DNA of 52,135 bases from an uncultured Opitutia bacterium (GTDB taxonomy: Bacteria > Verrucomicrobiota > Verrucomicrobiia > Opitutales > Opitutaceae), in assembly GCA_903855985.1 (NCBI GenBank), contig CAIOAO010000042.1, forward strand, positions 1 through 52,135, given 5' to 3'. Shown here piece after piece: positions 25,448 through 39,553 of this stretch. Both the position numbers and the translations under genes were made by a program. How positions within the stretch are numbered: the stretch's first letter is position 1; every line of letters begins with the position of its first letter. A model generated the notes under the pieces. That model did not search any database and was not told the origin of the DNA. It saw only the letters and a program-made list of their open reading frames with translations.

Positions 25448-25551
25448 GAAGGCAGAAGGAAGAATGAAGACGTTCAGCATTCGAACCACTGGCTTCTGAC
25501 CTCTTCTTTCCGGCATCCGACTTCTTCATTCTTCCTTCTTACCTCTTACTT
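25442..25551. repeat. Inverted repeat with 28-base arms between gspE and gspF
   Basis: Left arm 25442-25469 and right arm 25524-25551 pair at roughly 24 of 28 positions. Both arms have AAGTAAGA at one end and AGAAGGAAGAATGAAG at the other (right arm read on the minus strand). The gspE TAA stop is within the left arm, and the gspF ATG is 6 bases after the right arm. It is strongly A/G-biased on one strand, unlike the GC-rich genes on both sides. Confidence 0.9.
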
Positions 25552-25557
25552 CCATCC

Positions 25558-26787: not shown

Positions 26788-26793
26788 CACGAC

Positions 26794-26899
26794 AGTTTAA
26801 GGGGAAGCCAGGAAACCAGGAACCTGATCGAGTCAGTCGGGCAAGGCCGGTTCGACTTGCCCGTCCGGACTCCTGGCTTCCTGGCTTCCCCTTGAAACT
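26794..26899. terminator. Long inverted repeat between the two convergent halves of the gsp locus
   Basis: Left arm 26794-26821 and right arm 26871-26899 pair almost completely; the left arm lacks one C and has one further mismatch. Both carry AAGGGGAAGCCAGGAA in one orientation. An inner stem CGGGCAAG/CTTGCCCG is nested inside. It begins 6 bases after the gspF stop and lies between gspF and the end of gspM. A bidirectional terminator is the natural reading, but no U-tract follows the stem, so that role is inferred. The 44 bases to the gspM stop show only the word TTCCGTGTATTCCGTGG. Confidence 0.7.
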
Positions 26900-26943
26900 C
26901 CGGGGCCTGACTTCCGTGTATTCCGTGGGCCATCCCTTCGGAC

Positions 26944-27474
26944 TCAATGCACGATCTCGACTGACGACACCCGCAGCGACGCGTTCAGCACCGCCGGGTT
27001 CGCCCGCTCGGACTGCAGCGAGAACTGCTCGATGCCGATGTACGGCGAGCGCTTGGTCAGCTCGAGGTAGAACCGCTTCAGCCCCTCCCAGTCCATCTTC
27101 AGCAAATTGAACTGCACCGTGTGCACCGCAAACTGGCCGCTGCGCTCCGTGCGCGGCGTGTCGCTGGTGAACTTCAGCCCCTGCGCCCGCGCCAGCCCGT
27201 TGAGTTCGCCGACCAGCTGCGTGTCGTCGAGCGTCTTCGCCGGGTCGAGGTTCTTCACCGCCTGGCCCGCCCCCGCCTCGATGGTCCCGCGGTTCGCGAG
27301 CCATTGCTGCTGGTCGGCCAGGGCCACCGTCGTTGCACGCTGCGTCCGCCAGGCCCGTGCCACGCGGCCGCTGAAATTCGACAGCAGCGTCAGCGCCACG
27401 AGCAAAGCAATCACCACGAGGAGCAGCTTCTCACGCAGCAGCCGGCTGAGGAAAAAGACCTTGAGCGCGTTCAT
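26944..27474 (-). CDS. gspM: Type II secretion system protein GspM-like
   Basis: A 176-residue bitopic protein with a short cytoplasmic N-terminus (MNALKVFFLSRLLREK), one transmembrane helix at about residues 17-36, a coiled-coil-prone stretch (VALADQQQWLANRG) and a small ferredoxin-like periplasmic domain. In other species GspM pairs with GspL in the inner membrane platform. The identification rests on this layout and on being the last gene after gspL; sequence identity to GspM is always low. The ATG at 27474 overlaps the end of gspL by four bases (ATGA), so translation is coupled. Confidence 0.82.
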   Translation of the reverse strand: MNALKVFFLSRLLREKLLLVVIALLVALTLLSNFSGRVARAWRTQRATTVALADQQQWLANRGTIEAGAGQAVKNLDPAKTLDDTQLVGELNGLARAQGLKFTSDTPRTERSGQFAVHTVQFNLLKMDWEGLKRFYLELTKRSPYIGIEQFSLQSERANPAVLNASLRVSSVEIVH

Positions 27475-28613
27475 GAGGATGCGGCGGGCTTCAGCGCCTC
27501 GGGCCGGAAGGTGATGACGAGCGTGAACGTCATGAGGTTGTCGCGCGTGCGCTGGTCGCGCACCTCGACGGCCGCACAGGCCGGCTGCTCGCCGAGGGCC
27601 GAGCGGAAGGCCGCCACGTCGCCGGGCGAGGTCGTCTGGGCGTCCACCGTCAGGGTGTAGAGCCCGCTGGTCGTCGCCCGGAGGAACTGGATCGTCGCGG
27701 GCTTCCGCTCGCTGGCAACGGAGAGCATTTCCAGCGGCAGGAGCCGCTTGGTGGAGAGTTCGTTGGTCCGCGTCGCCAGGCTTTGCGCCGTCATGATCTG
27801 GTCCACGACCGGCTGCTGCGCCGCGACCTTCGCCTCGCGGGTCCGTTGCCACACGCCCTCGCCGAGGAGGGCTACCAGGCCCAGCAGCATCAACGCCACC
27901 GCCGCGATGCTGCCGATGAACAGCCGCCAGAGCAGCAGGTCGCGTCCCTGCGCGCGTCGCAGCGCCGCCAGCTCGGCCTTGTCGCGCACATCCATCGCGG
28001 CAGCCCGGCTGGCGGGCAGGCGCGACGCCAGCGCTTCCGCGTGAAACACAAATTCATCCCCGCCGCGCGCCATCGCCTCGGCCACCGGCGCCACGGCCAG
28101 CTCCACCACCTGCTTGCTGCCGCCCGCCAGGCGCAGCAGCTCGTCTTTCACCTTGGCTTGGTCGGACTCGGTCGCCTCGGGCGGCAACGGCCGGAAAAAC
28201 ACCGCCGCCGGCACGGGACCGTTCTCCCAATGCACCGCCGTGAGTCCGCCGGCCGACGGCACCAGCAGTGTCGTCGCGGGTTTCACCTCGGCGCCCAGCA
28301 GCGCGGCAAAGGCCGGCAGCACCAGCACCGCGCCGTCCCACTCCGCGAGCTGCTCGCGGGTAAACCGCCGGCGGTAGGCCGCAAAGACCAGCACACGCTC
28401 CGCCCCGGGCGCCCAGAAATATCCGTGATAAAGCTGCCCGGCGGGAAACGGCGAGAGGCCCTCCAGCGCCAGCTCGGCCTGCATCGCCACCTCGGCCGGG
28501 GTCGCCCCGGCGGACACGGGAAACGCCCGCGTGAAAAACAGCGCGTCCGGCAGCAGGACCACCTTGGGCGCCCGGGCGCCGGTCGGGAGGAGTTTGAGGG
28601 ACGGCGGGGTCAT
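27471..28613 (-). CDS. gspL: Type II secretion system protein GspL-like
   Basis: A 380-residue protein with an actin-like cytoplasmic half (residues 1 to about 215), a single transmembrane helix at 230-251 (RLFIGSIAAVALMLLGLVALL) and a periplasmic ferredoxin-like domain in the last 70 residues. This is the plan of GspL, and of a PilM-PilN pair in one chain. GspL recruits the GspE ATPase to the membrane. The ATG at 28613 overlaps the gspK stop by four bases, and its own stop overlaps the gspM start, so the three are translated as a unit. Confidence 0.84.
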   Translation of the reverse strand: MTPPSLKLLPTGARAPKVVLLPDALFFTRAFPVSAGATPAEVAMQAELALEGLSPFPAGQLYHGYFWAPGAERVLVFAAYRRRFTREQLAEWDGAVLVLPAFAALLGAEVKPATTLLVPSAGGLTAVHWENGPVPAAVFFRPLPPEATESDQAKVKDELLRLAGGSKQVVELAVAPVAEAMARGGDEFVFHAEALASRLPASRAAAMDVRDKAELAALRRAQGRDLLLWRLFIGSIAAVALMLLGLVALLGEGVWQRTREAKVAAQQPVVDQIMTAQSLATRTNELSTKRLLPLEMLSVASERKPATIQFLRATTSGLYTLTVDAQTTSPGDVAAFRSALGEQPACAAVEVRDQRTRDNLMTFTLVITFRPEALKPAASS

Positions 28614-29788
28614 GCGGCGGGCGGCGGAACAGGTGACATGTCGGCATTTTCCCTAATTTCCAAGAGTGTAAATGGGGAGTTGAGCCGCGCGGCCGGAGTC
28701 ACCGGGGCCACGGCTGGTCCGGTGGGCGCCGCCGAAGTGGGAGTGGTGCTGTTGCCAGACGCGGCCTCGGTGGCGGAGGTTGCAGTCGATTTGACGATTG
28801 TGGCCCCGCCCGACGGCGCCACGACCGCGGTCAGCCGGAACTCCGCGCGGCCCTCGCGGATCGTGATGTTCACCCGCAGCGCCCGGATCTGCGCTCCGGC
28901 CAGCGGTGGCAGCGCGGCCGAGCCCAGCACCGCGGAGATGTCGCCGGCGGAGTTGAACCAGCGCGGCCCCTGCGACACATACGCCCCGGTTCCGGCCAGA
29001 TACTCGCTCACGCGCTGCTGTTGCGTGACATCCGAAAACCCGAGCGCCATGAACACATCCGGCGGCGCGGCGTTGAGGTTGACCTGGGTAAAATTGTAGA
29101 GGGAGAACGTCGCCTCAAACCGGCGGCCTAGGTCGTTGAGCCGCCCCTGGTCGTCATAGAACACCTCGCGTGCGTAATCGATCGCCGCCAGCTCGGAGAA
29201 GGAGCGCAACGAGCGGCCGGGCGCGGTGTAAGGGATCGCCATCTGGTCGTAGTCCGTCGGCTGGCCCGACGCCGGCACGTAGTCCTTCCGCATCCAGCCC
29301 AACAGCGCGTCGGCCAGCCGCTGTGCGTCCGCCGGCGCCAGTTGCCACGCGTCGAACAGGTTCACCAGCGTCGCCGCGTCCACGCGGGTCAGAGGGAGTT
29401 TGCCGCTCTCGTCCACCAGTGTGACCTCCGCCGTGCAGCCCTCGCGCGGCGTCCAGCCGGCGAACCCCAGCGGATCGCCCCAGCCTTCCGCCGGGCTGTG
29501 CAGGCCGTTGTCGGCCTGACCGAAACTCTGCAGCGTCGCGAGGGTGACATCCAGGGCCGAGTAGGCCTCCTGCCGCAGGCGCTTCGCCGACGCGGTCCGC
29601 GCCTCGACCAGCAGGTCGTTGCTCGCCTGCTCGATGAACGCCACCAGCGCCACCGACGTGAACAGCAGTGTGACCAGCACGATCACGAGCACCGATGCGC
29701 GGGTCCGGACCGGGCGTACGGGCGCAGACTTGCTGCGCCCGTCAGTGTTGCGCGCCCGCCCTGCGAAGCCTTGGCGAAGTGGGGTCAT
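28610..29788 (-). CDS. gspK: Type II secretion system minor pseudopilin GspK
   Basis: A 392-residue minor pseudopilin that caps the pseudopilus tip. A long hydrophobic helix (SVLVIVLVTLLFTSVALVAF, residues 32-51) is followed by the large alpha domain typical of GspK (LPLTRVDAATLVNLFDAW, VNLNAAPPDVFMALGF). As in other GspK proteins, Glu at position 5 of the mature helix is missing. The leader is odd: about 30 residues long (MTPLRQGFAGRARNTDGRSK at its start), and encoded by two repeat-like stretches. No other start codon lies between the leader and the helix, so the leader is probably real. The C-terminal 70 residues are Ala/Thr/Pro-rich. The ATG is 1 base after the gspJ stop. Confidence 0.88.
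   Translation of the reverse strand: MTPLRQGFAGRARNTDGRSKSAPVRPVRTRASVLVIVLVTLLFTSVALVAFIEQASNDLLVEARTASAKRLRQEAYSALDVTLATLQSFGQADNGLHSPAEGWGDPLGFAGWTPREGCTAEVTLVDESGKLPLTRVDAATLVNLFDAWQLAPADAQRLADALLGWMRKDYVPASGQPTDYDQMAIPYTAPGRSLRSFSELAAIDYAREVFYDDQGRLNDLGRRFEATFSLYNFTQVNLNAAPPDVFMALGFSDVTQQQRVSEYLAGTGAYVSQGPRWFNSAGDISAVLGSAALPPLAGAQIRALRVNITIREGRAEFRLTAVVAPSGGATIVKSTATSATEAASGNSTTPTSAAPTGPAVAPVTPAARLNSPFTLLEIRENADMSPVPPPAA
29718..29783. repeat. Repeat-like DNA forming the GspK leader
   Basis: A perfect hairpin ACGGGCGCAG-ACTTG-CTGCGCCCGT occupies 29718-29742. Next to it, read on the minus strand, is CTTCGCCAAGGCTTCGCAGG at about 29756-29775. I recall strings of this kind as frequent intergenic repeats in related genomes, but cannot count them here. 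Both are translated as the leader of GspK. Confidence 0.6.
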
Positions 29789-29789
29789 G

Positions 29790-30542
29790 CTAGAAATTCG
29801 GCAGCCCCTCCGTCGGCGTGGGCAGGGTGATGACGCTCTCCCGCTTCAATTTCCCGTAGGCGAACTTCAGCCGCAGCCGCTGCGGGGTCTGCAGCTGGCC
29901 GGACGCGTCTTTGCGGATGACCGGCTCCGTCTTCCAGGTCTTGAAGTCGGCATCGTAATACTCGTACGCCAACGCGGTCACCAGCGGCGTGATGACCGTC
30001 TCGCGCGGCGGGTCGTCGTTGAACTTCGTCTCGAGCCGCGAGTGCCACAGCAGCACGAGCCCGTCGCGATCCCGCGCCTGCAGCGAGCAGACCACCTCCG
30101 GCAGCGGCCGGTCGGGCCACACCAGCAGCCGGCTCCCGGCGGGCAGCTCGAAGGTGAGCAGGTTGTCCGTCGCACCGTTGAGCGGCTTGATCTCCTGCGG
30201 CGTGATCGGCGTGGTCCCGGCGGACGCCGAAGGTGGCAGCGCCGCGGTGTGCAGCTCCTGGTCGAGGTAACGCGTGACCGCCCGCACGTGCCTGTCAAAC
30301 AGCCGCACGTCCGTGTTGCGCCCCCACAGCTCGCCCATCGAGAACACAAAGACATTGAGCGAAACCAGCACCAGCGCCGTCAGCGCCAGGGCCAGAAGGA
30401 TCTCGAGCAACGTGAATCCATTGCTCGCCACGCCGAAGCTCAACGGGCGAAGGCGGGCCGGACGGGTGAAGCCACGTTTGTCAGGGCCAGGCCTCCCGCC
30501 CAGCGGAACTCCTCTCACTGACATCTCAGGTCGAAGGTTCAT
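29790..30542 (-). CDS. gspJ: Type II secretion system minor pseudopilin GspJ
   Basis: A 250-residue minor pseudopilin. The prepilin cleavage site is SNG|FTLLE, with Gly42 as the -1 residue and Glu at mature position 5, followed by a hydrophobic helix (ILLALALTALVLVSLNVFVF). The downstream beta-rich domain, including YYDADFKTWKTEPVI, matches the GspJ type. The leader is 42 residues, far longer than the usual 5-15. Its last part, LRPLSFGVAS, resembles the same region of GspG. The ATG at 30542 overlaps the gspI stop (ATGA), which fixes the start well. Confidence 0.88.
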   Translation of the reverse strand: MNLRPEMSVRGVPLGGRPGPDKRGFTRPARLRPLSFGVASNGFTLLEILLALALTALVLVSLNVFVFSMGELWGRNTDVRLFDRHVRAVTRYLDQELHTAALPPSASAGTTPITPQEIKPLNGATDNLLTFELPAGSRLLVWPDRPLPEVVCSLQARDRDGLVLLWHSRLETKFNDDPPRETVITPLVTALAYEYYDADFKTWKTEPVIRKDASGQLQTPQRLRLKFAYGKLKRESVITLPTPTEGLPNF

Positions 30543-31003
30543 TTCTGGTTCGAGTTGGTTTTCCCCTGCAGCTTCGCGATCCGGTCCTGCGCGTCCTGCT
30601 TCAGCTTGGTGTTCTCCGTCGGATCCGCCCAGGTCGGGCGCAACACCGTGAAATTCTCCGTCACCGTTTGCGTCCCGCCCCCGCTCGCCGACTCCGCCGC
30701 CAGCTCGCAGACAAACGTCACCGTGAAGAGGTCGGCCATGGCCGTGGACGCGATCGTCGCGTGCCACCGCACCTGGCGTCCACCCGGCGAGACAAAATCC
30801 CCGCCCTTCTCCGCCGTGTCGTGGTCGGGTTCGGCGAGCAGCTGCGCGCGGGCGAAGCGGACGTCCTCGTCGGCCTGGTTGCCGCGCGCGACCGTCTCGT
30901 AGGCGTTGAGGACGTTCACATACGCCGAGCCGAGCACGACCGCCGCGAGCGCGAAAATCGCCAGCGCCACGATGACCTCCAGGAGTGTGAATCCACGACG
31001 CAT
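30539..31003 (-). CDS. gspI: Type II secretion system minor pseudopilin GspI
   Basis: A 154-residue minor pseudopilin with a very short leader (MRRG) and the site G|FTLLEVIVALAIFALAAVV, the standard prepilin peptidase site with Glu5. After the helix are a YETVARGNQADEDVRFARAQ region and a beta domain, as expected of GspI. It starts at an ATG at 31003, one base after the gspH stop, and overlaps gspJ by four bases. The short, normal leader contrasts with those of its neighbours gspG, gspH, gspJ and gspK. Confidence 0.9.
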   Translation of the reverse strand: MRRGFTLLEVIVALAIFALAAVVLGSAYVNVLNAYETVARGNQADEDVRFARAQLLAEPDHDTAEKGGDFVSPGGRQVRWHATIASTAMADLFTVTFVCELAAESASGGGTQTVTENFTVLRPTWADPTENTKLKQDAQDRIAKLQGKTNSNQK

Positions 31004-31004
31004 G

Positions 31005-31625
31005 TCAGGGATTGCCCTCCACCCGCGGCAGCACCTGCGCGCAGGTCCACGGGTCAATGCTGAGCACCTTGGCCGCCCCGCCGGCCCGGAACTGGGCCCG
31101 GAACGGCGAGCAGGTGCCGTCGGGATAAAATGTCACCGCCGGCACGGTCTTGGTGTCCACGAGTTCGCCCCCGATGAGCACCGAACTCTGGCCGGGCTGC
31201 GCCGAGAGGAAATCCACCGTCAGGTCGCGCACGACCAGGACCGGAAGGGCCAGCGGCGCCGCCCCGTCATCCAGTATGAAGGCTTGTTGCTTGGGATCAA
31301 AACTCAGCCGCACCTCGCGCTCGGCCGTGAGTGCCGCAGTGCGGGATTGCTGCACCGCCTGCCAGAAAACGGCTTCCGGTGTCGCCGGCATGTCGCTGAG
31401 CAGGTTGACCGACCCCGTCACCAGCACCGCCGCGAGCAACCCCATCAGCGCTATGGCGAGCAGGATTTCCAGCAGCGTGAACGCGTACTCGAGGTGGGGC
31501 GTGTTGTCCCTGACACGCTGGTAATGACTTGGGGACGGGGCGCCCCCGCCCCGTCTAAGGCCCAACCGCGGCGAGGGTGCCGCGGCCCCATCCCCACCCA
31601 ACGAGGGCCGAAAGCGTGTCTCCAC
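31005..31625 (-). CDS. gspH: Type II secretion system minor pseudopilin GspH
   Basis: A protein of about 206 residues with the prepilin motif EYA|FTLLEILLAIALMGLLAAV; the residue before the cleavage is Ala rather than Gly. The rest is a GspH-type beta domain (FWQAVQQSRTAALTAEREVR, then VTFYPDGTCSPF). The leader is about 48 residues and is encoded by two GC-rich hairpins. The start is uncertain: a GTG at 31625 lies 11 bases after the gspG stop, and a TTG at 31643 overlaps that stop. No closer start codon exists except a TTG inside the leader (LGLRRGG), so hairpin sequence is translated in every case. Confidence 0.82.
   Translation of the reverse strand: METRFRPSLGGDGAAAPSPRLGLRRGGGAPSPSHYQRVRDNTPHLEYAFTLLEILLAIALMGLLAAVLVTGSVNLLSDMPATPEAVFWQAVQQSRTAALTAEREVRLSFDPKQQAFILDDGAAPLALPVLVVRDLTVDFLSAQPGQSSVLIGGELVDTKTVPAVTFYPDGTCSPFRAQFRAGGAAKVLSIDPWTCAQVLPRVEGNP
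31534..31585. repeat. Two tandem GC-rich hairpins inside the GspH leader
   Basis: The first stem is GACGGGG (31534-31540) with CCCCGTC (31549-31555); the second is CCGCGGC (31566-31572) with GCCGCGG (31579-31585). Both are fully translated as part of the GspH leader (SPRLGLRRGGGAPSPS). Such hairpins usually sit between genes in this window, so an intergenic element may have been taken into the reading frame. Confidence 0.65.
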
Positions 31626-31636
31626 GGAGAGGTAGC

Positions 31637-32143
31637 CTACCAATTCCCAATATCGTCCGCCGTCCCGTCCTGCTTGTCGGGTCCCTTGGAATAAATGTCG
31701 TAGCCCTTGGGGTTATGCACGCCGGGGTACTTGTAAACGTAGGGCTCGCCCCAGGGGTCGACCGGGAGCTTCGGATCGCTGAAATACGGCCCATGCCACG
31801 ACTCGGTCCTGCTCGCCGGCGCGGTGATCAACGCCTGCAGCCCTTCCGCCGTCGAGGGATAGTCGCCCATCGCGATGCGGTAGCTGCTGAGCGGCAGCTT
31901 GATGGATTCGCTGACAAACAGCTTGGCCGTGGTGCCCTGCGCGTTGCCAAAGATGGTGTCGAGATTGGTGACCGCCAGCCCCACCAGCAGCGCCAGGATC
32001 GCCAGCGCGATCATGATCTCCAGCAGGGTGAACGCCCTGCTGGCCACGCCGGAGTTCCGCCGGGCGGGACGAAGGCAGGCGAGGAGCTTGGAGCCAACGG
32101 TCTTAGTCCGCGGGGCATTTCGAACCGAATTGGAAAGCATCAT
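31637..32143 (-). CDS. gspG: Type II secretion system major pseudopilin GspG
   Basis: A 168-residue major pseudopilin, the main subunit of the pseudopilus. The cleavage site is SRA|FTLLEIMIALAILALLV, with Ala37 at -1 and Glu5 conserved. The family signatures follow: MGDYPSTAEGLQALI, then KLPVDPWGEPYVYKYPG and the final DGTADDIGNW loop, where calcium binds in studied GspG proteins. The leader of 37 residues is unusually long and shares LRP, GVAS and FTLLE words with GspJ. The start is an ATG at 32143, or the adjacent ATG at 32140. It opens the minus-strand gspGHIJKLM run. Confidence 0.93.
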   Translation of the reverse strand: MMLSNSVRNAPRTKTVGSKLLACLRPARRNSGVASRAFTLLEIMIALAILALLVGLAVTNLDTIFGNAQGTTAKLFVSESIKLPLSSYRIAMGDYPSTAEGLQALITAPASRTESWHGPYFSDPKLPVDPWGEPYVYKYPGVHNPKGYDIYSKGPDKQDGTADDIGNW

Positions 32144-32231
32144 GGCAGGCAAAGGTTGGCGTCGCAGCGCATGGATGTCGAGACGCCCGCGGCGGCCAAA
32201 AGTTGCCCGGAACCGGAACGCCCAAGGGCTT

Positions 32232-32444
32232 TCAGGCACTCATCCGCAGCAGATCGGGCAGCAGCTCCCGCTCGGCCGTCTCCCAATAACCGCAGGCCAT
32301 ATCGTGCTCCTGCAGCCGGGCCAGTTCATCCGCGCGGCGCGCGATCCTGAGCTGCAACCGGACCAGATCGTCCAACGGGAAGTCGACGACTGCCACAGGT
32401 TCTATTGTGGGTGAAGCGAGGGTCATGGTGGCGGCGGGGCTCAT
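32232..32444 (-). CDS. Small hypothetical protein upstream of gspG
   Basis: A 70-residue protein that I do not recognise. It is predicted soluble and largely helical, with a central DDLVRLQLRIARRADELARL segment and a conserved-looking end (ACGYWETAERELLPDLL). It starts at an ATG at 32444 (MSPAATM) or at 32426. It lies 88 bases before gspG on the same strand and 87 bases after the MoaE-MoeB-rhodanese gene. It could be an accessory of the secretion locus or unrelated. The 86-base spacer toward the Mo genes shows nothing I can name. Confidence 0.55.
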   Translation of the reverse strand: MSPAATMTLASPTIEPVAVVDFPLDDLVRLQLRIARRADELARLQEHDMACGYWETAERELLPDLLRMSA

Positions 32445-32530
32445 CCTCCAGCTTGTCGCTCCCACTCCATTCCACAACCCGCCCCCGGTTAAGAACAGGC
32501 AACGAAACGCCGCCCTTCACCCGGTTACAC

Positions 32531-34048
32531 TCAACGCCCGGGCCGAATCGCCGACAGTGCTCCGGCCAGGGCGTGAATGTTGGGCCGGCCCTCCGCGCGG
32601 AGCAACCGCGCCAGGGCCACGCTGCGCAGGCCGTGGCGGCAGGTCAGGACGGTCGGGCCCTTGGCGGCAACTTCGCGGAGGCGTCCAAGGTCGGCCATCG
32701 CGATGGCCATCGTGTTCGCCGGGGCCGACGCGGCGTCGAGGGTCTCGCCGGGTTCGAGAAGCGCGATCGTCTGGACCGGGCCGAGGTCCACGACTTGCTC
32801 GGCGGTCAGCACCACGGAGTCATTTAACGTATTAAGTGAAAACGACCCATCCTCTGCGGCAGATGACGTGACCACCTTGCTGCAGACCGGACACGTGGGA
32901 TCGGCGGGGCGCTCGAGCGACTGCGTCGAGGCGTCCAGGAGATTAACGAGGCGCGTGGAGGTAAGATCGGCGGGGGTCGAGAGGCCGAGGATCAGCTTCA
33001 GCGTCTCCGCGGCTTGCATCACGCCGAGCAGGCCGACCGTCGGCGCAAACACCGGGCCGCCGTCGCAGTTGGCCGCGGTTTCCAGGCTGAGCGCCGGCTT
33101 GCCCGCCCAGAGGCAGTGCAGGCAGCCGGTCTGGTGCGGCGCGAAGACGTTAAGCTCGCCTTCGAAGCGGTACACGGCGGCGGAGACCAGTGGCACGCCG
33201 GCCGCGCGGCAGGCGTCGTGCAACAGAAAGCGCGTCGCAAAATTGTCCGTGCAGTCCAGCACCGCCGTGCGGCCCGTCACGAGCGCGCGCACATTCGCCG
33301 GCGTCACGTCGGACGCGTGGGCCTCGATCTTCACCAGCGGATTTTGCGCGCGCAGCCGCGCCGCGGCCACGGTCGCCTTCGCTGCGCCGACGTCGTCGGC
33401 GGTAAACAGGATCTGCCGGTGCAAATTCGACACCTCCACTTTGCCAGCGTCGGCGAGCGTCAGCCGCCCCACCCCGGACGTCGCCAGGTACAGCGCCGCC
33501 GGGCACCCCAGGCCGCCCGCGCCCACCACCAGCACGCTGGCCTCGGCGAGTCGCACCTGCCCGGCGGCCCCCACCTCGGGCAGTGACGCCTGACGGGCGT
33601 AATAATTTTCCGGAGCCAGCCGGCCGGCGACGGACTCCGTCGTGCAGTTGACCCACTCCGCGAGGTTGCCGGAGTGGTGCTCCTTCTTCCACACCGGCAG
33701 CCGGCGCTTGATCTCCTCGATCACCTGCCGGCACGCGAGAAACGCCGCGTGGCGGTGCGGCGAGACCACCCCGATCCACACCGCGAGTTCGCCAATCCCC
33801 AGCGAGCCCGTGCGGTGCACGCAGAGCACCGTGCAGCCGGGATGCTCCTGTTCCGCCTCCGACGTGATCGCTTCACCCTCGAGCCGGGCCAGCTCGTCGA
33901 ACGCCTCGTACTCGAGCCGCGAGACGGGTTTCCCGGCGTGGTGATTCCGCACCCAGCCCTCAAACACGACACACGCCCCGGCGTCGGGCCGCGCCAGCCG
34001 CGTGCGCAGCGCAGCGAAATCGATGGGTTGGTCGGTGAGTTCAAACAT
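32531..34048 (-). CDS. MoaE-MoeB-rhodanese triple fusion for molybdopterin synthesis
   Basis: A 505-residue fusion of three parts. Residues 1-135 are MoaE, the large subunit of molybdopterin synthase, with the catalytic lysine region VWKKEHHSG (K121/K122). Residues 140-395 are a MoeB/MOCS3-type adenylyltransferase: ATP site GAGGLG at 176-181, zinc cysteines C309/C312 and C386/C389, and NCDGG with C328 in the region of the MOCS3 cysteine. Residues of about 412-505 form a rhodanese domain with the active loop CRHGLRS (C470). MoeB activates the MoaD C-terminus, rhodanese gives sulfur, and MoaE uses it, so one chain would hold successive steps. A repeat-like sequence encodes the linker around 404-410. 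It follows moaD by 3 bases and ends the mod-moa run. Confidence 0.92.
   Translation of the reverse strand: MFELTDQPIDFAALRTRLARPDAGACVVFEGWVRNHHAGKPVSRLEYEAFDELARLEGEAITSEAEQEHPGCTVLCVHRTGSLGIGELAVWIGVVSPHRHAAFLACRQVIEEIKRRLPVWKKEHHSGNLAEWVNCTTESVAGRLAPENYYARQASLPEVGAAGQVRLAEASVLVVGAGGLGCPAALYLATSGVGRLTLADAGKVEVSNLHRQILFTADDVGAAKATVAAARLRAQNPLVKIEAHASDVTPANVRALVTGRTAVLDCTDNFATRFLLHDACRAAGVPLVSAAVYRFEGELNVFAPHQTGCLHCLWAGKPALSLETAANCDGGPVFAPTVGLLGVMQAAETLKLILGLSTPADLTSTRLVNLLDASTQSLERPADPTCPVCSKVVTSSAAEDGSFSLNTLNDSVVLTAEQVVDLGPVQTIALLEPGETLDAASAPANTMAIAMADLGRLREVAAKGPTVLTCRHGLRSVALARLLRAEGRPNIHALAGALSAIRPGR
32820..32839. repeat. Palindromic repeat inside the fusion gene linker
   Basis: TCATTTAA-CGTA-TTAAGTGA: eight-base arms with one mismatch. 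On the minus strand it reads TCACTTAATA, then CGTTAAATGA, then CTCCGTGG, closely matching the intergenic repeat at 8649-8670, which reads TCACTTAATA, then AGTGACACTACGG. It is an AT-rich island in GC-rich coding sequence, translated as SLNTLND between the MoeB zinc site and the rhodanese domain. Confidence 0.7.
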
Positions 34049-34051
34049 GGG

Positions 34052-34303
34052 TCAGCCTCCGGCCACCGGCGGGATGAACACCACACGGTCCCCCGGCGAC
34101 AGCGGGGTGTCCATCGTGGCGTAACGGTCGTTGATCGCCACGCGGAGCAGCGCCACGGGCAGCGTCAGCCCGCGTGTCGCCGCCAGCTCCGCGTACAGCT
34201 CCGCCGGCGTGCGGGCGGAAGTGGTTACGGCGAGCGTGGACACGCCAGCCTGCTCGCGAAGTACCGCGAAAAACTTGATGTGCAGCTGGCGTGAAGCGGT
34301 CAT
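34052..34303 (-). CDS. moaD: Molybdopterin synthase small subunit MoaD
   Basis: An 83-residue ubiquitin-fold sulfur carrier. It ends in the double glycine VAGG required for adenylation by MoeB and thiocarboxylate formation, and has the usual beta-grasp pattern (LHIKFFAVLREQAG, VAINDRYATMDTPLSPGDRVVFIPPV). It lies between moaA (6 bases) and the MoaE-MoeB-rhodanese fusion (3 bases), so the carrier and the enzymes that charge and use it are made together. The ATG at 34303 gives a short Thr-rich N-terminus. Confidence 0.95.
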   Translation of the reverse strand: MTASRQLHIKFFAVLREQAGVSTLAVTTSARTPAELYAELAATRGLTLPVALLRVAINDRYATMDTPLSPGDRVVFIPPVAGG

Positions 34304-34309
34304 GGCGGT

Positions 34310-35287
34310 TCAGCCCCCGATCTCCGACATGCCGCGCGTGGGGATCACGTGCTGCTCGAGTCCATGGCCCCAGGGCTTGTCGAACACGGCCGCGCGGATG
34401 CGTTCGGTCAGCGCCGCGTCGTCCGCCCCGCCGCGTAGCAGGGCGCGCAGGTCCATCTCGTTGTCGCGCAGCAGGCAGAGGTGCAGCCGGCCTTCCGCCG
34501 TCAGGCGCATCCGCGTGCAGTCGGCGCAGAACGGCTTCGACACCGGGCTGATGAAACCGATGCAGCCGGCGGCGCCCGCGATCCGGTAGAGGCGCGCCTC
34601 GCCGTCCAGCCGGCCGTGGTTGACGAGCTCGAGCGGGCCGTAGGCCTCCGCCAGGACGGCGAGCAGTTCGTCCTCGCTGACCATGCTGTGGGTCTGGAAC
34701 TCCGCGTTGTTGCCGAACGGCATCTGCTCGATGAACCGCACCTGCCAGGGGTGCTCCAGGGTGTATCGCGCCAGCGCGACGACGTCGGCGCGGTCGTTGC
34801 GGCCGCGGGACACAACGGCGTTGAGCTTGATGCCCAGGCCGACGCGCGCGGCGGCGTCGAGTCCCGCCAGGACCTTGTCGAGCTGGCCCCAACGCGTGAT
34901 CTGCTTGAATTTGTCCGGGTCGAGCGTGTCGAGGGAGAGGTTGACCGCGCGCAACCCGGCCGCGCGCAGCGGCGCCGCCAGGTCGGCGAGCAGGATGCCG
35001 TTGGTCGTCAGCCCGATCGTCTCGATGCCCGGCGTGCGCGCGGCGGTGGCGACGAGGTCCACCAGGCCGGGCCGCAGCGTGGGCTCGCCGCCGGTGAAGC
35101 GGATTTTGCGGAAGCCCACCGCGGCAAACAGCCCGATCAGCCGGTGCAGCTCGGCGTCGGAGAGCAGTTCCTCGCGGGGGCGGAAGGTCATCTTCTCCGG
35201 CATGCAGTACACGCAGCGGAGGTTGCAGGCATCCGTGAGCGAAATGCGCAGGTAGCTGATGTCGCGGTTGAAGCGGTCGAAGGGCAT
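34310..35287 (-). CDS. moaA: GTP 3',8-cyclase MoaA
   Basis: A 325-residue radical SAM enzyme that turns GTP into the cyclic intermediate in the first step of molybdenum cofactor synthesis, together with MoaC. The N-terminal cluster cysteines are C21, C25 and C28 in CNLRCVYC. The C-terminal cluster region reads PFCADCTRMRL, followed by HLCLLRD. RFTGGEPTLRPG is the SAM-binding GGE motif. The protein ends in GG, as is usual for MoaA. The start at 35287 is fixed by a one-base gap to the mogA stop (TGAAATG), pointing to translational coupling. Confidence 0.97.
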   Translation of the reverse strand: MPFDRFNRDISYLRISLTDACNLRCVYCMPEKMTFRPREELLSDAELHRLIGLFAAVGFRKIRFTGGEPTLRPGLVDLVATAARTPGIETIGLTTNGILLADLAAPLRAAGLRAVNLSLDTLDPDKFKQITRWGQLDKVLAGLDAAARVGLGIKLNAVVSRGRNDRADVVALARYTLEHPWQVRFIEQMPFGNNAEFQTHSMVSEDELLAVLAEAYGPLELVNHGRLDGEARLYRIAGAAGCIGFISPVSKPFCADCTRMRLTAEGRLHLCLLRDNEMDLRALLRGGADDAALTERIRAAVFDKPWGHGLEQHVIPTRGMSEIGG

Positions 35288-35288
35288 T

Positions 35289-35783
35289 TCAGGAGGGGCG
35301 CAGCGCGGGACGGAAACCGGCAACGTGGTCCAGCGCCTCGGCAATGGCCGGCAGCAGGAGCGGCAGGCACTCGGCGACAGCGGTGGGACGGCCGGGGAGG
35401 TTGATGATCAGCGAACGGCCGCGGATGCCGGCGGTGGCGCGGGAGAGGATCGCGGTCTTCACCTTGGCGTAATTGGTCAGCCGCATGATCTCGCCAAAAC
35501 CGGGCAGCTCCCGTTCCAGCACGGCTCGCGTGGCCTCGGGCGTGAAGTCGCGGGCGGAGGGTCCCGTGCCACCGGCGGTGAGGATAAGCGGGCAGTGCTC
35601 CTCGTCCACGAGCCGGCGCAGGGTCTTTTCCAGTTCGGCGCGGTCGTCGGGCAGCAGCACGCGCGTCCACTCGAGCGGCTCCGCAAACGCCGACTCGACG
35701 ATGCGCTCGATCTCCGGACCGCTGGCGTCGGGGTATACGCCGGCGGCGGCGCGGTCGCTGAGTTTGATGCGGGCGATCTTCAT
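35289..35783 (-). CDS. Molybdopterin adenylyltransferase MogA/MoaB
   Basis: A 164-residue protein of the MogA/MoaB family, which adenylates molybdopterin before metal insertion. It carries the substrate loop LTAGGTGPSARDFTPEAT and the strand SLIINLPGRPTAVAECL. The length is closer to MoaB than to the longer MogA, but the two cannot be separated safely here, so no symbol is given. The ATG at 35783 overlaps the moaC stop by four bases. The molybdenum-inserting MoeA partner is not in the window. Confidence 0.9.
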   Translation of the reverse strand: MKIARIKLSDRAAAGVYPDASGPEIERIVESAFAEPLEWTRVLLPDDRAELEKTLRRLVDEEHCPLILTAGGTGPSARDFTPEATRAVLERELPGFGEIMRLTNYAKVKTAILSRATAGIRGRSLIINLPGRPTAVAECLPLLLPAIAEALDHVAGFRPALRPS

Positions 35784-36250
35784 GACTTGAGTTTTTGCAC
35801 GACGCGGATGCCGCCGATGGACATGCCCTTGTCCACGGCCTTGCACATGTCGTAGACGGTGAGTGCGGCGACGGACACGGCGGTGAGCGCCTCCATCTCG
35901 ACCCCGGTCTTGCCGGTGGTGCGGGCGCTGGCGCGGATGACGATGCCGTCGGACTCGACCTCAAACCCGATCTCCACCGCCGAGAGCGCAAGCGGGTGGC
36001 AGAGCGGGATGAGCGTGCTGGTGGCCTTGGCCGCCGAGATACCGGCAATCTTGGCCACAGTGAGGACGTCACCCTTCGGTAGCGCAGCGGCGCGCAACAA
36101 CCGGATGGTCGAGGGGGCACACGTGAGCCGGCCCTCGGCGATGGCGAGGCGGACGGAGTCGGGCTTCGCGCTCACGTCCACCATCTTGGCGTTACCTTGG
36201 GTGTCGAGGTGGCTGAAAGCCGCCGCCGTTTTGGTGAGTTTTTTAGGCAT
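35780..36250 (-). CDS. moaC: Cyclic pyranopterin monophosphate synthase MoaC
   Basis: A 156-residue MoaC that rearranges the MoaA product to cyclic pyranopterin monophosphate. Diagnostic motifs are LTVAKIAGISAAKATSTLI with PLCHPL, GKTGVEMEALTAVSVAALTVYDMCKA and VDKGM, which contains the catalytic Asp and Lys. The ATG is at 36250, following CTGGTTCC rather than a Shine-Dalgarno. It opens the moa part of the run, 69 bases after the modC stop, with a repeat filling the gap. It overlaps mogA by four bases. Confidence 0.97.
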   Translation of the reverse strand: MPKKLTKTAAAFSHLDTQGNAKMVDVSAKPDSVRLAIAEGRLTCAPSTIRLLRAAALPKGDVLTVAKIAGISAAKATSTLIPLCHPLALSAVEIGFEVESDGIVIRASARTTGKTGVEMEALTAVSVAALTVYDMCKAVDKGMSIGGIRVVQKLKS

Positions 36251-36265
36251 GGAACCAGGGATGGG

Positions 36266-36350
36266 GAGTTAGGATTTATGACTTATGAGTGATGAATCGC
36301 CGCTGAAGGCATTCGTTTCCTAATTCCTAACTCCTAAATCATAATTATTT
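36266..36350. repeat. AT-rich word repeats at the modC/moaC junction
   Basis: An AT-rich stretch between moaC and modC. Words such as GAGTTAGGATTTATGA (36266-36281) recur on the minus strand in the other half as TTATGATTTAGGAG and GTTAGGAATTAGG. They are in a scrambled inverted order rather than a perfect stem. The minus-strand part encodes the last nine residues of ModC (NNYDLGVRN) and its TAG stop. Confidence 0.7.
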
Positions 36351-37054
36351 TTCGCCAGCACGTGATGCGGCCGGGGGCTGGTGGTGAACAGCTCCGCCGG
36401 CGGGCCGCGCCGCACGCAGCGGCCGGAATCCAAGACCAGCACCTCGTCGCAGAGCGCCACCATCTCGTCGGCGTCGTGGCTGACCATGAGCGTCGGGATT
36501 TGAAACTCGTCGCGGATCTTCTTGAGGTACGGCAGGATCTGGTCCTTCAGCCCGGCATCGAGGTTCGTCAGCGGCTCGTCGAGCAGCAGCAAACGCGGCG
36601 CCGCGAGCAGCGCCCGGCCGAACGCGACGCGCTGTTTTTCCCCGCCGGAAAGCGAGCCGATGCGCCGTACCGCCAGCGGGCCGATGTTCAGGATCTCCAC
36701 CACGTGGTCGTAGCCCAACCCGGGCCGGGCCCCGGGGCCGCTCGCCCGCTGGCTGTAGCAGAGGTTTTCGTGCACCGACAGGTGCGTGAACAGCGCGCCG
36801 TCCTGCGGCACATAGCCGATCCCGCGCTGTTCCGGGGCGCGAAAGATGTCGGCGGCCACATCCGTGAGCGCCTCGCCGTCGAGGGCGATGCGGCCCTCGG
36901 CCGGGCGGCGGAGGCCGGCGATGGCTTCGAGCAGGGAGGTCTTGCCCGCACCCGAGGCGCCGAACAGCCCCGTCATGCGCGCGGTCAGCCGCGCATCGAG
37001 TTCCAGCTCAAACGTGGCCAGCGGGAGCCACAGCCCGGAGATTTCCAGGTTCAT
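36320..37054 (-). CDS. modC: Molybdate ABC transporter ATP-binding protein ModC
   Basis: A 244-residue ABC ATPase that drives molybdate import. Walker A is GASGAGKTS at residues 32-40, the signature is LSGGEKQRVAFGRALL, and Walker B is LLLLDEPLTNLD, followed by the switch histidine in LMVSHD. It is about 100 residues shorter than E. coli ModC: the C-terminal molybdate-binding (TOBE/Mop) domain is absent. The last nine residues, NNYDLGVRN, are AT-rich coding and come from a repeat. The ATG at 37054 overlaps the modB stop by four bases. Confidence 0.93.
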   Translation of the reverse strand: MNLEISGLWLPLATFELELDARLTARMTGLFGASGAGKTSLLEAIAGLRRPAEGRIALDGEALTDVAADIFRAPEQRGIGYVPQDGALFTHLSVHENLCYSQRASGPGARPGLGYDHVVEILNIGPLAVRRIGSLSGGEKQRVAFGRALLAAPRLLLLDEPLTNLDAGLKDQILPYLKKIRDEFQIPTLMVSHDADEMVALCDEVLVLDSGRCVRRGPPAELFTTSPRPHHVLAKNNYDLGVRN

Positions 37055-37719
37055 GCGGGGATCCTCCGCAGCAGGCGCTCGCTGAACCACACCGCGCCAA
37101 ACGCCAGCGCCACGGCAATCGCCAGCAGCACCAGCGCCTCGCTGTCGCGGCCGAGTTGCACGAGGTGGTAAATCGAGAGGGAGAGCGTCTCCGTTTTTCC
37201 CGGGATGAAACCCGCCAGCATCACCGTCGCGCCGAACTCGCCGAGCGCGCGGGCAAAGGCCAGCACCGCGCCGGCAATCACGCCCGGGCGGGCGAGCGGC
37301 AGTGTGATCGTCCAGAACACCCGCCACGGCCCGGCGCCCAGCGTGCGGGCGACGTGCTCCACCCGCGGATTGACGCTTTCAAACGCCACCCGGGCCGTCC
37401 GGACCAGCAGCGGGAACGACATCACCGCCGTCGCGACCACGACCGCCTTCCACGTAAACACGATCTCGAGGCCCAGGCTGGTCTCGAGCCAGTGTCCGAT
37501 CACCCCCCGCCGGCCGAGCAGTTTCAGCAGCAGCAGGCCGGTGGCCACCGGCGGAATCACCAGCGGCAGGGCGACCAGCGTTTCCACCACGGATTTCCCC
37601 GGCCAGTCGCGCCGCGCCAGCAGCCAGGCCAGCGCGAGGCCCGGCGGCAGGATGCAGAGCGTGCTCACGACCGCGACCCACGCGGTAAACCAAGTGATCT
37701 GCCAGGCGGCGGAGGACAT
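37051..37719 (-). CDS. modB: Molybdate ABC transporter permease ModB
   Basis: A 222-residue inner membrane permease with five or more hydrophobic helices. The EAA loop that contacts ModC reads EHVARTLGAGPWRVFWTITL, and ARALGEFGATVMLAGFIPGK, which lines the molybdate pathway, is diagnostic for ModB. The ATG at 37719 lies two bases after the modA stop. The open frame runs much further upstream, but that part is antisense-like and overlaps modA, so it was not used. Confidence 0.95.
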   Translation of the reverse strand: MSSAAWQITWFTAWVAVVSTLCILPPGLALAWLLARRDWPGKSVVETLVALPLVIPPVATGLLLLKLLGRRGVIGHWLETSLGLEIVFTWKAVVVATAVMSFPLLVRTARVAFESVNPRVEHVARTLGAGPWRVFWTITLPLARPGVIAGAVLAFARALGEFGATVMLAGFIPGKTETLSLSIYHLVQLGRDSEALVLLAIAVALAFGAVWFSERLLRRIPA

Positions 37720-37721
37720 GG

Positions 37722-38486
37722 TCAGGGCAGCAAGGTGAAACCGTACCGGGCGAACACCGCCCGGCTCTCCGCCGAGGTCAGGCGGGCGAGAAACAACGCT
37801 GCGCCGGCGGGATTTTTTCCACCCTTCACGAGCGCCACGGGATAGGAAATGTGCGGGGCGGCGGCGCCGGTGACTTCGCAGGCGATCTTCACCTTCCGGG
37901 AAATCAGGGCGTCGGTCTGGTAAACGATGCCGGCGTCGGCGTTGCCGCTTTCGACGGCGGCCAGGGCGGCGCGGACGTTTTCCGTGGCCACCACCCGGGC
38001 CGCGACCGCGTCCCAGACCTTCGCTTGTTGCAGATATTGCCTGGCGTAGATTCCCGCGGGCACCGTGGCGGTCTCGGCGAGGGCGAGGTGCTTCACCGCG
38101 GGGCCGGCGAGGTCGGCCGGCGTGCCCAGCGCCAGCAGGCTGTCGAGCGGCACGACGACGACGAGACGGTTGCCCAGGAGGCTCCGCCGGCTGGCGGCGT
38201 CGATGTGCCCGATCTTCGCCAGATCGTTCATCTTGGCCTCGTCGGCGGAGAAAAAGAGATCGGCGGGCGCGCCCTCCCGGATCTGGCGGGCCAGCAGGCT
38301 GGACGCGGCGAGATTCAACCGGACGGCGTCCCCGGTCGCCCGCTGGTGGGCGGCGGCGATTTCCTTCAGCGCATCGGCCAGGCTGGCGGCGGCAAACACG
38401 CTGATCTCCGCGGCGGCGGCAGACGACAGGCCGAGCCACCCGAGGACCAGCCCGAGCGCAAGCAGGGAGCGGCGGGGAAAGTGCAT
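37722..38486 (-). CDS. modA: Molybdate-binding periplasmic protein ModA
   Basis: A 254-residue solute-binding protein for molybdate. An N-terminal signal peptide (MHFPRRSLLALGLVLGWLGL, then SSAAA) is cleaved near AEISVF. The mature start ISVFAAASLADALKEIA is the ModA hallmark, with the oxyanion-binding serines in AASL and LAASSLLARQI. DAGIVYQTDAL near the C-terminus is also typical. The ATG at 38486 is chosen; a TTG 21 bases upstream is less likely. It is first in a run of eight genes (modABC, moaC, mogA, moaA, moaD, fusion) and lies beside a palindrome shared with the divergent regulator gene. Confidence 0.96.
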   Translation of the reverse strand: MHFPRRSLLALGLVLGWLGLSSAAAAEISVFAAASLADALKEIAAAHQRATGDAVRLNLAASSLLARQIREGAPADLFFSADEAKMNDLAKIGHIDAASRRSLLGNRLVVVVPLDSLLALGTPADLAGPAVKHLALAETATVPAGIYARQYLQQAKVWDAVAARVVATENVRAALAAVESGNADAGIVYQTDALISRKVKIACEVTGAAAPHISYPVALVKGGKNPAGAALFLARLTSAESRAVFARYGFTLLP

Positions 38487-38508
38487 GGAGGAACATTTTC
38501 TGGCCAAG

Positions 38509-38540
38509 TTTCCGACCTATTCAAGTGAATAGGTCGGAAA
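38509..38540. promoter_or_regulatory. 32-bp palindrome between modA and the ModE-like gene, probable operator
   Basis: Perfect 15-base arms, TTTCCGACCTATTCA at 38509-38523 and TGAATAGGTCGGAAA at 38526-38540, with AG between. It lies 22 bases upstream of modA and 64 bases upstream of the regulator's ATG, in the only space available for both promoters. The form fits a dimeric regulator site. The regulator next to it is the obvious candidate binder; the sequence differs from the E. coli ModE box that I know. Confidence 0.75.
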
Positions 38541-38604
38541 CGGGCCGGCCCCGGGAACGGACAATTCAGTTGCGTGCCCGCGCCCGCCCAGCTTCATCGC
38601 CGGG

Positions 38605-38964
38605 ATGCCCGCGCCGGCCAGGTCGCTCACGATTGTGCCCAGCATCCGCCTGTACCACGGGCGGATCTTCGCCTTCGGGCCGGGCAAGGCCGCGCTACTC
38701 GAGCACATCGGCCGCACCGGCTCGATCAGCGAGGCCGCCAAGGCCATGGAGATGTCCTACATGAAGGCGTGGAAGCTCGTGAAGAGCATGGAGCGCGGGT
38801 TCGCCGAACCCCTCGTCCGCAAGACCCGCGGCGGCTCGGCCCGCGGCGGCGCGACCATCTCCCCCACCGGCCGGAAGGTCCTCACCCTCTACCGGGAAAT
38901 GGAATCCGCCAGCCAGGCCGTCATCCGCCGCGCCGTCCCGCGGCTCAACCGCCTGCTCAAGTAG
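38605..38964 (+). CDS. ModE-like molybdate-responsive regulator, DNA-binding domain only
   Basis: A 119-residue winged-helix protein with the ModE N-terminal domain: IGRTGSISEAAKAMEMSYMK (residues 35-54) is the helix-turn-helix, followed by AWKLVKSMERGF and the wing GGSARGGATISPTG. It has no C-terminal Mop domains for molybdate binding, so if it senses molybdate it does so differently. Divergent placement from modA and the palindrome between them support control of the mod-moa run. The ATG at 38605 is chosen; upstream codons reach back toward the palindrome. Confidence 0.9.
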   Translation: MPAPARSLTIVPSIRLYHGRIFAFGPGKAALLEHIGRTGSISEAAKAMEMSYMKAWKLVKSMERGFAEPLVRKTRGGSARGGATISPTGRKVLTLYREMESASQAVIRRAVPRLNRLLK

Positions 38965-39477: not shown

Positions 39478-39553
39478 TGGTGCCCCCGTCCGGAATTGAA
39501 CCGGAATATGCCGTTTAGGAAACGGCTGCTCTATCCATTTGAGCTACGGGGAC
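39478..39553 (-). tRNA. tRNA-Arg (anticodon CCT)
   Basis: A 76-base tRNA with encoded CCA. On the minus strand it starts GTCCCCGTAGCTCAAATGGA. The acceptor arms GTCCCCG and CGGGGGC pair with one U-G. The anticodon stem GCCGT/ACGGC surrounds the loop TTCCTAA, giving CCT, which decodes AGG. A GC-rich stem GCCGGGG/CCCCGGC (39447-39467) follows its 3' end on the minus strand. The remaining spacer to 39331 shows no gene. Confidence 0.95.

What the first reader, a model, noticed from the sequence alone, without database searches (positions are those of the whole stretch)
32531..34048. MoaE, MoeB and rhodanese in one polypeptide
Three successive functions of molybdopterin synthesis are fused: sulfur mobilisation (rhodanese C470), MoaD activation (MoeB with NCDGG and two CxxC pairs) and dithiolene formation (MoaE lysines K121/K122). 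The eukaryotic MOCS3 fuses only MoeB and rhodanese. Key residues are intact in all three parts, and moaD, the substrate carrier, is encoded 3 bases upstream. It may channel MoaD between charging and consuming sites.
Basis: partly seen in the sequence, partly recalled or inferred. Interest (0 to 1): 0.6.

Follow-up and report, generated by a model that had tools for sequence, protein, structure and literature searches.

The report
Fused molybdopterin synthase, activating enzyme, rhodanese
One bacterial gene joins, in a single protein, three normally separate steps that put sulfur into the molybdenum cofactor; the same joined gene recurs in related and some distant bacteria and looks like a working enzyme rather than an error.

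Summary
Window 32531-34048 (minus strand, 505 aa) is one open frame with MoaE, a MoeB/ThiF-type E1 and a short divergent rhodanese; moaD ends 3 bases upstream in a mod-moa operon. It is no frameshift artefact: relatives at 94, 92, 83 and 78% identity are fused too. In the window's family 35 of 252 genomes hold MoaE and E1 in one frame, 29 spanning all three parts; more lie in Pseudomonadota and Krumholzibacteriota. No other MoaE or MoaD/ThiS was found in the window's genome, and its second E1 is TcdA-like. Catalytic residues are intact, with one correction: E. coli MoaE K119/K126 map to K114/K121, not K121/K122. The rhodanese scores below Pfam's cut-off, but its model resembles rhodaneses and C470/R475 stand in 32 of 32 rows holding the domain. 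The E1 tree rejects a local fusion of Opitutaceae genes (p 0.0135) and allows one old origin, without bootstrap support. Best explanation: one chain that charges MoaD, like MOCS3/MoeZ, and uses it, like MoaE. Channelling is untested. The open papers searched gave no description. New variant of a known kind, moderate interest.

The parts
32531..34048 (-). fused gene, 505 aa: MoaE + MoeB/ThiF E1 + rhodanese
33644..34048 (-). MoaE domain (residues 1-135); K114 and K121 align with E. coli K119 and K126; R34, H98, R99 kept
33602..33643 (-). linker 1 (residues 136-149), low model confidence; His-rich in Pseudomonadota relatives
32879..33601 (-). MoeB/ThiF-type adenylating E1 domain (residues 150-390); R152, N208, R211, K224, D268; Zn cysteines C309, C312, C386, C389; C328
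32813..32878 (-). linker 2 (residues 391-412), mostly low model confidence (393-409), little constraint
32534..32812 (-). rhodanese domain (residues 413-505), active-site loop CRHGLRS with C470
34052..34303 (-). moaD, 83 aa, ends in Gly-Gly; stop codon 3 bases before the fused gene
34310..35344 (-). moaA (ORF; true start probably a little inside)
35289..35846 (-). mogA-type molybdopterin adenylyltransferase
35780..36250 (-). moaC
36320..37327 (-). modC (ORF; ATPase match starts near residue 103)
   Evidence: TIGR02142 below its cut-off
37051..38496 (-). modB (ORF; permease match residues 259-478)
37722..38507 (-). modA
38605..38964 (+). ModE-like DNA-binding domain, divergent from the operon
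   Evidence: TIGR00637 below its cut-off

Best explanation
The protein is the only MoaE found in this genome and its only MoeB-type activating enzyme, joined to a rhodanese. MoaD binds the E1 domain, whose ATP site makes MoaD-AMP at the C-terminal Gly-Gly. A persulfide on C470 of the rhodanese gives the sulfur, and C328 helps to release MoaD thiocarboxylate, as C412 and C239 are said to do in MOCS3. MoaD-COSH then moves to the MoaE domain, where K114 and probably K121 act in the two sulfur transfers to cyclic pyranopterin monophosphate that make molybdopterin; spent MoaD returns to the E1. Shown here: one frame, domain identities, conserved residues, purifying selection on all three parts, moaD next door, no other moaE, moaD or moeB found. 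Inferred: the chemistry, from the named families. Not shown: that MoaD passes between domains of one molecule without leaving (channelling), and which protein loads C470.
For: Domains. Residue mapping to E. coli MoaE and MoeB; K114 and K121 in 39 of 39 distinct fused rows, C470 and R475 in 32 of the 32 rows that hold the rhodanese (one copy of the window, L085, removed). Whole-chain model: best PDB match by E-value Uba4 6yub, an E1 with rhodanese (TM 0.41/0.49, rmsd 15.5, so the domain arrangement differs or is not predicted). Rhodanese fragment: mean pLDDT 89.5; most of the 50 listed PDB matches are named rhodanese or sulfurtransferase, best E 1.0e-3. dN/dS against L004, L015, L005, L105: MoaE 0.09-0.19, E1 0.07-0.20, rhodanese 0.20-0.35. 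Only one MoaE in the own genome and in each of 14 of 14 genomes of other fused loci searched; one MoaD/ThiS; second E1 is TcdA-like. MoaD match within 250 bases upstream and ending in GG in 34 of 38 relatives; the other four showed no MoaD match. Two MoeA_N matches and a molybdopterin oxidoreductase in the genome give the product a use. MOCS3 C412/C239 (stated there for URM1): passage of PMC5372717; MoaE K119/K126: passage of PMC4443979.
Against: No activity was measured. The rhodanese is below Pfam's cut-off and its first half is divergent; no PDB match of its model is below E 0.001. Three relatives lack it (L089, L134, L135). In Haloferax the equivalent of K121 (K247R) was tolerated in vivo (passage), and in Uba4 the E1 cysteine helps but is not essential, while MoeB is said to form no thioester (passages of PMC12954526), so the roles of K121 and C328 are less sure. 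Nothing tests channelling. The genome is a 110-contig assembly, so absence of separate genes is not absolute; one family member, G324, has two MoaE matches.
Confidence: 0.78

Rival explanations
1. The rhodanese is a fading appendage: sulfur reaches MoaD-AMP on the E1 domain straight from a cysteine desulfurase or TusA-like protein, as in E. coli, and the protein is in effect a MoaE-MoeB fusion.
For: Sub-threshold rhodanese; highest dN/dS of the three parts in most comparisons; only five invariant columns in the tail alignment; not present in L134, L135 and L089.
Against: C470, G473 and R475 invariant in alignment A1 and C470/R475 in 32 of 32 rows with the domain; dN/dS 0.20-0.35 in the four closest comparisons; in the three rows without rhodanese, C328 or zinc cysteines and D268 are changed as well, which suggests that the parts work together.
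Confidence: 0.2
2. The chain is cut after translation into MoaE and MoeB-rhodanese, as MoaX is cut, so that the fusion is only a way of equal expression.
For: MoaX cleavage is needed for activity (title of PMC4326299); linker 1 is short, variable and of low model confidence.
Against: The case for cutting MoaX rests on MoaD's C-terminus (passages); here MoaD is a separate protein with a free Gly-Gly end in 34 of 34 loci where it was seen. By eye no conserved cleavage site stands out at the junction.
Confidence: 0.1
3. The fusion works, but without channelling: MoaD is released and finds either domain by diffusion, and the fusion brings only co-expression and fixed ratio.
For: In E. coli MoaD forms a complex with MoeB and then reassociates with MoaE (passage of PMC5372717); the model gives no confident arrangement of domains (pTM 0.51).
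Against: The fused order recurs in distant phyla, which suggests some advantage, but does not say which.
Confidence: 0.45
4. Sequencing or assembly error, or a chance readthrough of neighbouring genes.
For: One relative (L018) has a stop codon inside the E1 part, and L024 has separate neighbouring genes.
Against: Relatives at 94, 92, 83 and 78% identity in other assemblies are fused too (the 83% one, L005, stops about ten residues earlier), and 29 of 252 genomes of the family match over all three parts.
Confidence: 0.01

Closest known systems
MOCS3 / Uba4 and bacterial MoeBR, MoeZR (MoeB with C-terminal rhodanese)
   Same: E1 and rhodanese in the same order, with the E1 cysteine and the rhodanese cysteine kept; best structural match by E-value is Uba4 6yub
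   Different: MoaE is added at the N-terminus; the rhodanese is divergent; the fused E1 domains lie outside the supported group of separate MoeB/MoeBR enzymes in the tree
MoaE / MOCS2B (catalytic subunit of molybdopterin synthase)
   Same: Whole domain with K114, K121, R34, H98, R99
   Different: Not a separate subunit; carries the enzyme that recharges its partner MoaD
MoaX and MoaD-MoaE fusions
   Same: Fusion within the same step of the pathway
   Different: There MoaD is fused and must be cut free (PMC4326299, title and passages); here MoaD is separate
MoaD-MoeB, MoaD-MoeBR, MoaC-MoaE and MobB-MoaE fusions
   Same: Other pairings of the same pathway parts (passages of PMC11237513, and PMC4443979)
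   Different: None of the passages read names MoaE joined to MoeB

Membership tests
MoaE (molybdopterin synthase catalytic subunit) | Match to the family profile over its whole length | tested here: met
   PF02391 1-114 of 114, 114 bits against cut-off 23.4; the NCBIfam MoaE model PRK10678 is below its cut-off, 67.6 of 175
MoaE (molybdopterin synthase catalytic subunit) | Catalytic lysines (E. coli K119, K126) and R39, H103, R104 | tested here: met
   K114, K121, R34, H98, R99; K114 and K121 in 39 of 39 rows. That R39, H103, R104 matter is recalled
MoaE (molybdopterin synthase catalytic subunit) | Forms MPT synthase with MoaD | not testable with these tools
   Needs protein
MoeB/MoeBR activating enzyme | ThiF fold with adenylation residues R14, N70, R73, K86, D130 of E. 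coli MoeB | tested here: met
   R152, N208, R211, K224, D268 (that these residues matter is recalled)
MoeB/MoeBR activating enzyme | Two CxxC pairs for zinc | tested here: met
   C309/C312, C386/C389; in L021, L044, L056, L108 the second pair is changed
MoeB/MoeBR activating enzyme | Falls among known MoeB/MoeBR in a tree | tested here: not met
   47 of the 50 rows counted as separate form a supported group (99/98) without fused rows; the others are L024, the contig-cut L028 and the TcdA-like outgroup L102. No NCBIfam MoeB or MoeZ model reaches its cut-off. So it is filed as MoeB-like, not as a MoeB/MoeBR member
Rhodanese | Profile match above cut-off | tested here: not met
   14 and 17 bits, cut-off 22.2; met in L016, L044, L056 of 8 relatives scanned. 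So for the window's protein: rhodanese-like
Rhodanese | Rhodanese fold and active-site loop that starts with the cysteine | tested here: met
   Fragment model: best E 1.0e-3, none below 0.001, TM (query) 0.46-0.63 in the 50 listed; CRHGLRS, C470 and R475 kept
Rhodanese | Sulfurtransferase activity | not testable with these tools
   Needs protein

The most novel reading that the evidence does not exclude
The protein is a self-contained molybdopterin assembly line: within one homodimer, held together by both the MoaE and the E1 dimer faces, a single MoaD swings between the charging site and the consuming site for both sulfur transfers without being set free. That would make the old question of how MoaD is handed from MoeB to MoaE open to direct structural and kinetic study.
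Probability: 0.25. Interest if true: 0.6.

Novelty: new variant of a known kind. Interest (0 to 1): 0.42.

Why it matters
In E. coli and humans MoaD/MOCS2A must be recharged by MoeB/MOCS3 and come back to the synthase; how this hand-over is organised is, as far as I recall, poorly seen. A natural enzyme that holds both partners of MoaD in one chain reduces the system to two proteins (MoaD and the fusion), which could be studied by cryo-EM or tested for channelling. It also gives a clear marker gene: a one-gene replacement of moaE, moeB and a rhodanese that keeps its order over long distances and may have moved between phyla.

Tried and rejected
Artefact or frameshift: rejected by close relatives that are fused too. 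Idea that C135 at the MoaE/E1 junction is special to the fusion: rejected, since 9 of 9 separate MoaE of the window's family that were compared have the same WVNC/WINC ending (L097, L099, L100, L110-L115). Idea that the fusion arose by joining the local MoaE and MoeBR of Opitutaceae: the E1 tree rejects it (p 0.0135; the grouping was named after the first tree). A second function of the E1 for thiamine: no ThiS-family protein other than this MoaD was found. Rfam found only two tRNAs in the window. Promoter scan of 32200-38800 found no sigma-70-like site; terminator-like hits were 8 against 3.6 expected, the 8 listed all on the plus strand; not used.

Rows dropped or relabelled: one search left out loci that repeat the same gene; one search used 84 of 108 E1 rows (24 left out, mostly near-copies) and counted L018, whose gene is cut by a stop, as fused. 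In the first one-clade test the 34 fused E1 rows without L028 were rejected as a clade (p 0.0007). L028 is cut by its contig end inside a His-rich stretch like the linkers of its neighbours, so I counted it as fused after seeing the tree; with it the clade is not rejected (p 0.51, the held tree slightly better). That change is after the fact. In the MoaE tree the fused rows need 3 changes and one clade is not rejected (p 0.48). In both trees the fused rows, as first labelled, were one side of a branch in 0% of 200 bootstrap trees. In one search there were 40 rows, one (L085) a copy of the window; counts here are for 39. Eight dN/dS comparisons were made; four are quoted, in the others the rhodanese gave 0.22, 0.37, 0.45 and one saturated.

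Full report
What is there. The open frame 32531-34048 on the minus strand codes for 505 residues. Pfam finds MoaE at 4-116 and ThiF at 150-388, both far above cut-off. The tail, 413-505, matches Rhodanese only weakly: 14 bits in the whole protein, 17 bits for the last 109 residues, cut-off 22.2. Of the 24 tails of alignment A2, 19 match Rhodanese at E 0.05 or better, and three of the eight relatives scanned pass the cut-off (L016, L044, L056). A model of the tail alone (mean pLDDT 89.5) has mostly proteins named rhodanese or sulfurtransferase among its 50 listed PDB matches; the best E is 1.0e-3, none is counted below 0.001, and the TM-scores by query length are 0.46-0.63. The model of the whole chain (mean pLDDT 83.6, pTM 0.51) has Uba4, an E1 with a rhodanese, as best match by E-value, but at rmsd 15.5. 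The linkers, 136-149 and 393-409, have low confidence, so the arrangement of the domains is not known.

Residues. Aligned to E. coli K-12 genes, K119 and K126 of MoaE fall on K114 and K121; R39, H103, R104 fall on R34, H98, R99. A passage of PMC4443979 says that K119 of bacterial MoaE is essential and that the K126A variant is nearly 60 times slower; in Haloferax the equivalent of K119 (K240) is crucial, while K247R (the equivalent of K126) and K248R behaved like wild type in vivo. In the E1 part R14, N70, R73, K86, D130 fall on R152, N208, R211, K224, D268, the zinc cysteines on C309, C312, C386, C389, and C187 on C328 (the roles of these MoeB residues are recalled). A passage of PMC5372717 describes, for URM1, a persulfide on C412 of the MOCS3 rhodanese, a disulfide with the carrier, and release by C239. 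C470 and C328 stand in those places. Passages of PMC12954526 say that in Uba4 the E1 cysteine promotes the reaction but is not essential, and that MoeB forms no thioester, so the role of C328 is an inference.

Conservation. In 39 distinct fused rows (one copy of the window removed) K114 and K121 are in 39 of 39; D268 in 36 of the 37 rows that reach it; C328 in 34 of 36; C470 and R475 in 32 of 32 rows with the domain. Seven rows lack the rhodanese: three are cut by contig ends (L017, L106, L131), one is broken by a stop (L018), and three do not have it. Of these, L134 and L135 (sister rows in both trees) have a different frame in its place, and L089 shows no rhodanese in the 251 bases left on its stretch. 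L135 has also lost C328 and the first zinc pair and does not reach the second, L134 has S for C328, and L089 (a second copy in a genome that keeps a first copy, L088, with these residues) has lost zinc cysteines and has N for D268 but keeps C328. The MoaE lysines are kept in all three. The joint changes suggest that the E1 cysteines and the rhodanese work together; with two losses at most this is weak. dN/dS between the window and L004, L015, L005, L105 is 0.09-0.19 for MoaE, 0.07-0.20 for the E1 and 0.20-0.35 for the rhodanese, and about 1 in the 22-codon linker 2 for two of them.

Context. On the minus strand the order is modA, modB, modC, moaC, mogA, moaA, moaD, fused gene, with a ModE-like gene facing away at 38605. 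The stop codon of moaD lies 3 bases before the ATG, and GGAGG lies just upstream. Of 38 relatives, 34 show a MoaD match on the locus, each within 250 bases upstream and ending in Gly-Gly; one has no MoaD match on the locus (L019) and three begin at or near a contig end. The window's genome (2.9 Mb, 110 contigs, 100% complete by the tool) has one MoaE, one ThiS/MoaD and one further E1 whose best NCBIfam model is TcdA, 276.8 bits, below its cut-off of 304. It has two MoeA_N matches and two Molybdopterin matches, of 258 and 41 bits. So the pathway and a likely user of its product are present.

Distribution. A scan of named genomes returned the best 79 loci of at least 560; 21 hold MoaE and E1 in one continuous frame (some cut by contig ends), from Verrucomicrobiota, Pseudomonadota, Krumholzibacteriota and one record named only bacterium; one more is broken by a stop (L018). 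Three have the parts as separate neighbouring genes: L024 (Ignavibacteria), moaE first, and L071 and L079 (Bacteroidota), moaE last. In the window's family 202 of 252 genomes have MoaE. 35 of 252 have MoaE and E1 in one frame; 29 of these span residues 2 or lower to 484 or higher, two end before the rhodanese, and four are incomplete at contig ends or at the N-terminus. Five of the 29 alignments run over a stop codon; in the four that I hold as sequence (L005, L012, L088, L091) the frame ends near its C-terminal end. In the window's genus 11 of 12 genomes have the fusion (one cut by a contig end) and the twelfth has no MoaE match. In 14 genomes of other fused loci the only MoaE is the fused one, 14 of 14. 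This is not a rule: G266 has two fused copies and G324 two MoaE matches, and G477, G480 and G324 have a second E1 match. Of 17 distinct genomes searched for E1 (19 handles, two doubled), 3 have a further non-fused E1 over 200 bits. Among 274 genomes of the class of L044 (Gammaproteobacteria by its record title) 200 have MoaE, and in the capped list two frames are long enough for the fusion; both, L044 and L108, are fused.

Origin. In the E1 tree 47 of 50 rows counted as separate form one supported group (99/98) without any fused row; the other three are L024, the contig-cut L028 and the TcdA-like outgroup. The separate MoeBR genes of the window's family that were included lie inside that group. 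A tree in which the family's fused and separate E1 domains are one clade is rejected (p 0.0135), while all fused rows with L028 as one clade is not (p 0.51); without L028 it is rejected (p 0.0007). L028 begins at its contig end inside a His-rich stretch like the linkers of L044 and L056, so I take it for a cut fused gene, a choice made after the tree. The MoaE tree is weaker: one clade is not rejected (p 0.48). In neither tree did any of 200 bootstrap trees show the fused rows, as first labelled, as one side of a branch. I conclude that the window's gene was probably not made by joining local genes, and that one old fusion, later passed between phyla or often lost, is possible and the simplest reading, but not shown.

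How it most likely works. The fused chain charges MoaD (E1 and rhodanese) and uses it (MoaE). Each chemical step is inferred from the named families. In E. coli MoeB and MoaE each act as dimers with MoaD (passage of PMC5372717), so the fusion could be a closed dimer or a chain; I could not test this. Channelling is a fair hypothesis with no direct support.

Known or new. Searches of the open-access library for MoaE with MoeB, rhodanese, ThiF, fusion and related phrases gave no paper that, in its listing or in the passages I read, describes MoaE joined to MoeB; not every listed paper was opened. Passages of PMC11237513 describe MoaC-MoaE, MoaD-MoaE, MoaD-MoeB and MoaD-MoeBR fusions; passages of PMC1779556 describe MoaD-MoaE fusions and E1-rhodanese; PMC4326299 (title, start of abstract and passages) MoaX; PMC3227635 (passages) bacterial MoeBR and MoeZR with thiosulfate sulfurtransferase activity; passages of PMC6147048, a survey of molybdenum use, do not mention it. 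Most subscription papers and the domain-architecture pages of databases were not searched, so the architecture may be listed there without comment. I rate it a new variant of a known kind.

Noticed in passing
L092 3683-5434(-), L093 4303-5949(-), L094 5775-7538(+), L095 5970-7613(+), L096 5795-7465(+): Five genomes of other families in the same class carry a different fusion, MoaE followed by a MoeA-like protein (548-588 aa frames). Only L093 was scanned (MoeA 258 bits, below cut-off 440); the other four were judged by eye.
   Followed up: partly
L016, L021, L044, L056, L108, L028 (linker between MoaE and E1): In Pseudomonadota members the linker is His-rich, with a further cysteine in some (NCERC), and in L021, L044, L056 and L108 the second zinc CxxC pair of the E1 is changed. 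It may bind metal; the window's gene lacks it.
   Followed up: partly
L089 5369-6541(+) and L088 4850-6310(-): One genome (G266) has two fused copies: one with all checked residues, one with zinc cysteines changed, D268 changed to N and no rhodanese seen, but with the MoaE residues kept.
   Followed up: partly
L134 and L135, just downstream of the fused gene: Where the rhodanese is missing, the next frame is a conserved one that looks like a MOSC-type protein (by eye, not searched).
   Followed up: no
window 25546-32239: Run of genes that look like a type II secretion or pseudopilin cluster (a GspF-like frame on the plus strand and several prepilin-like N-termini on the minus strand), next to the mod-moa operon; by eye.
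   Followed up: no
window 39481-39553 and 18641-18722, minus strand: Two tRNA genes (Rfam RF00005).
   Followed up: no
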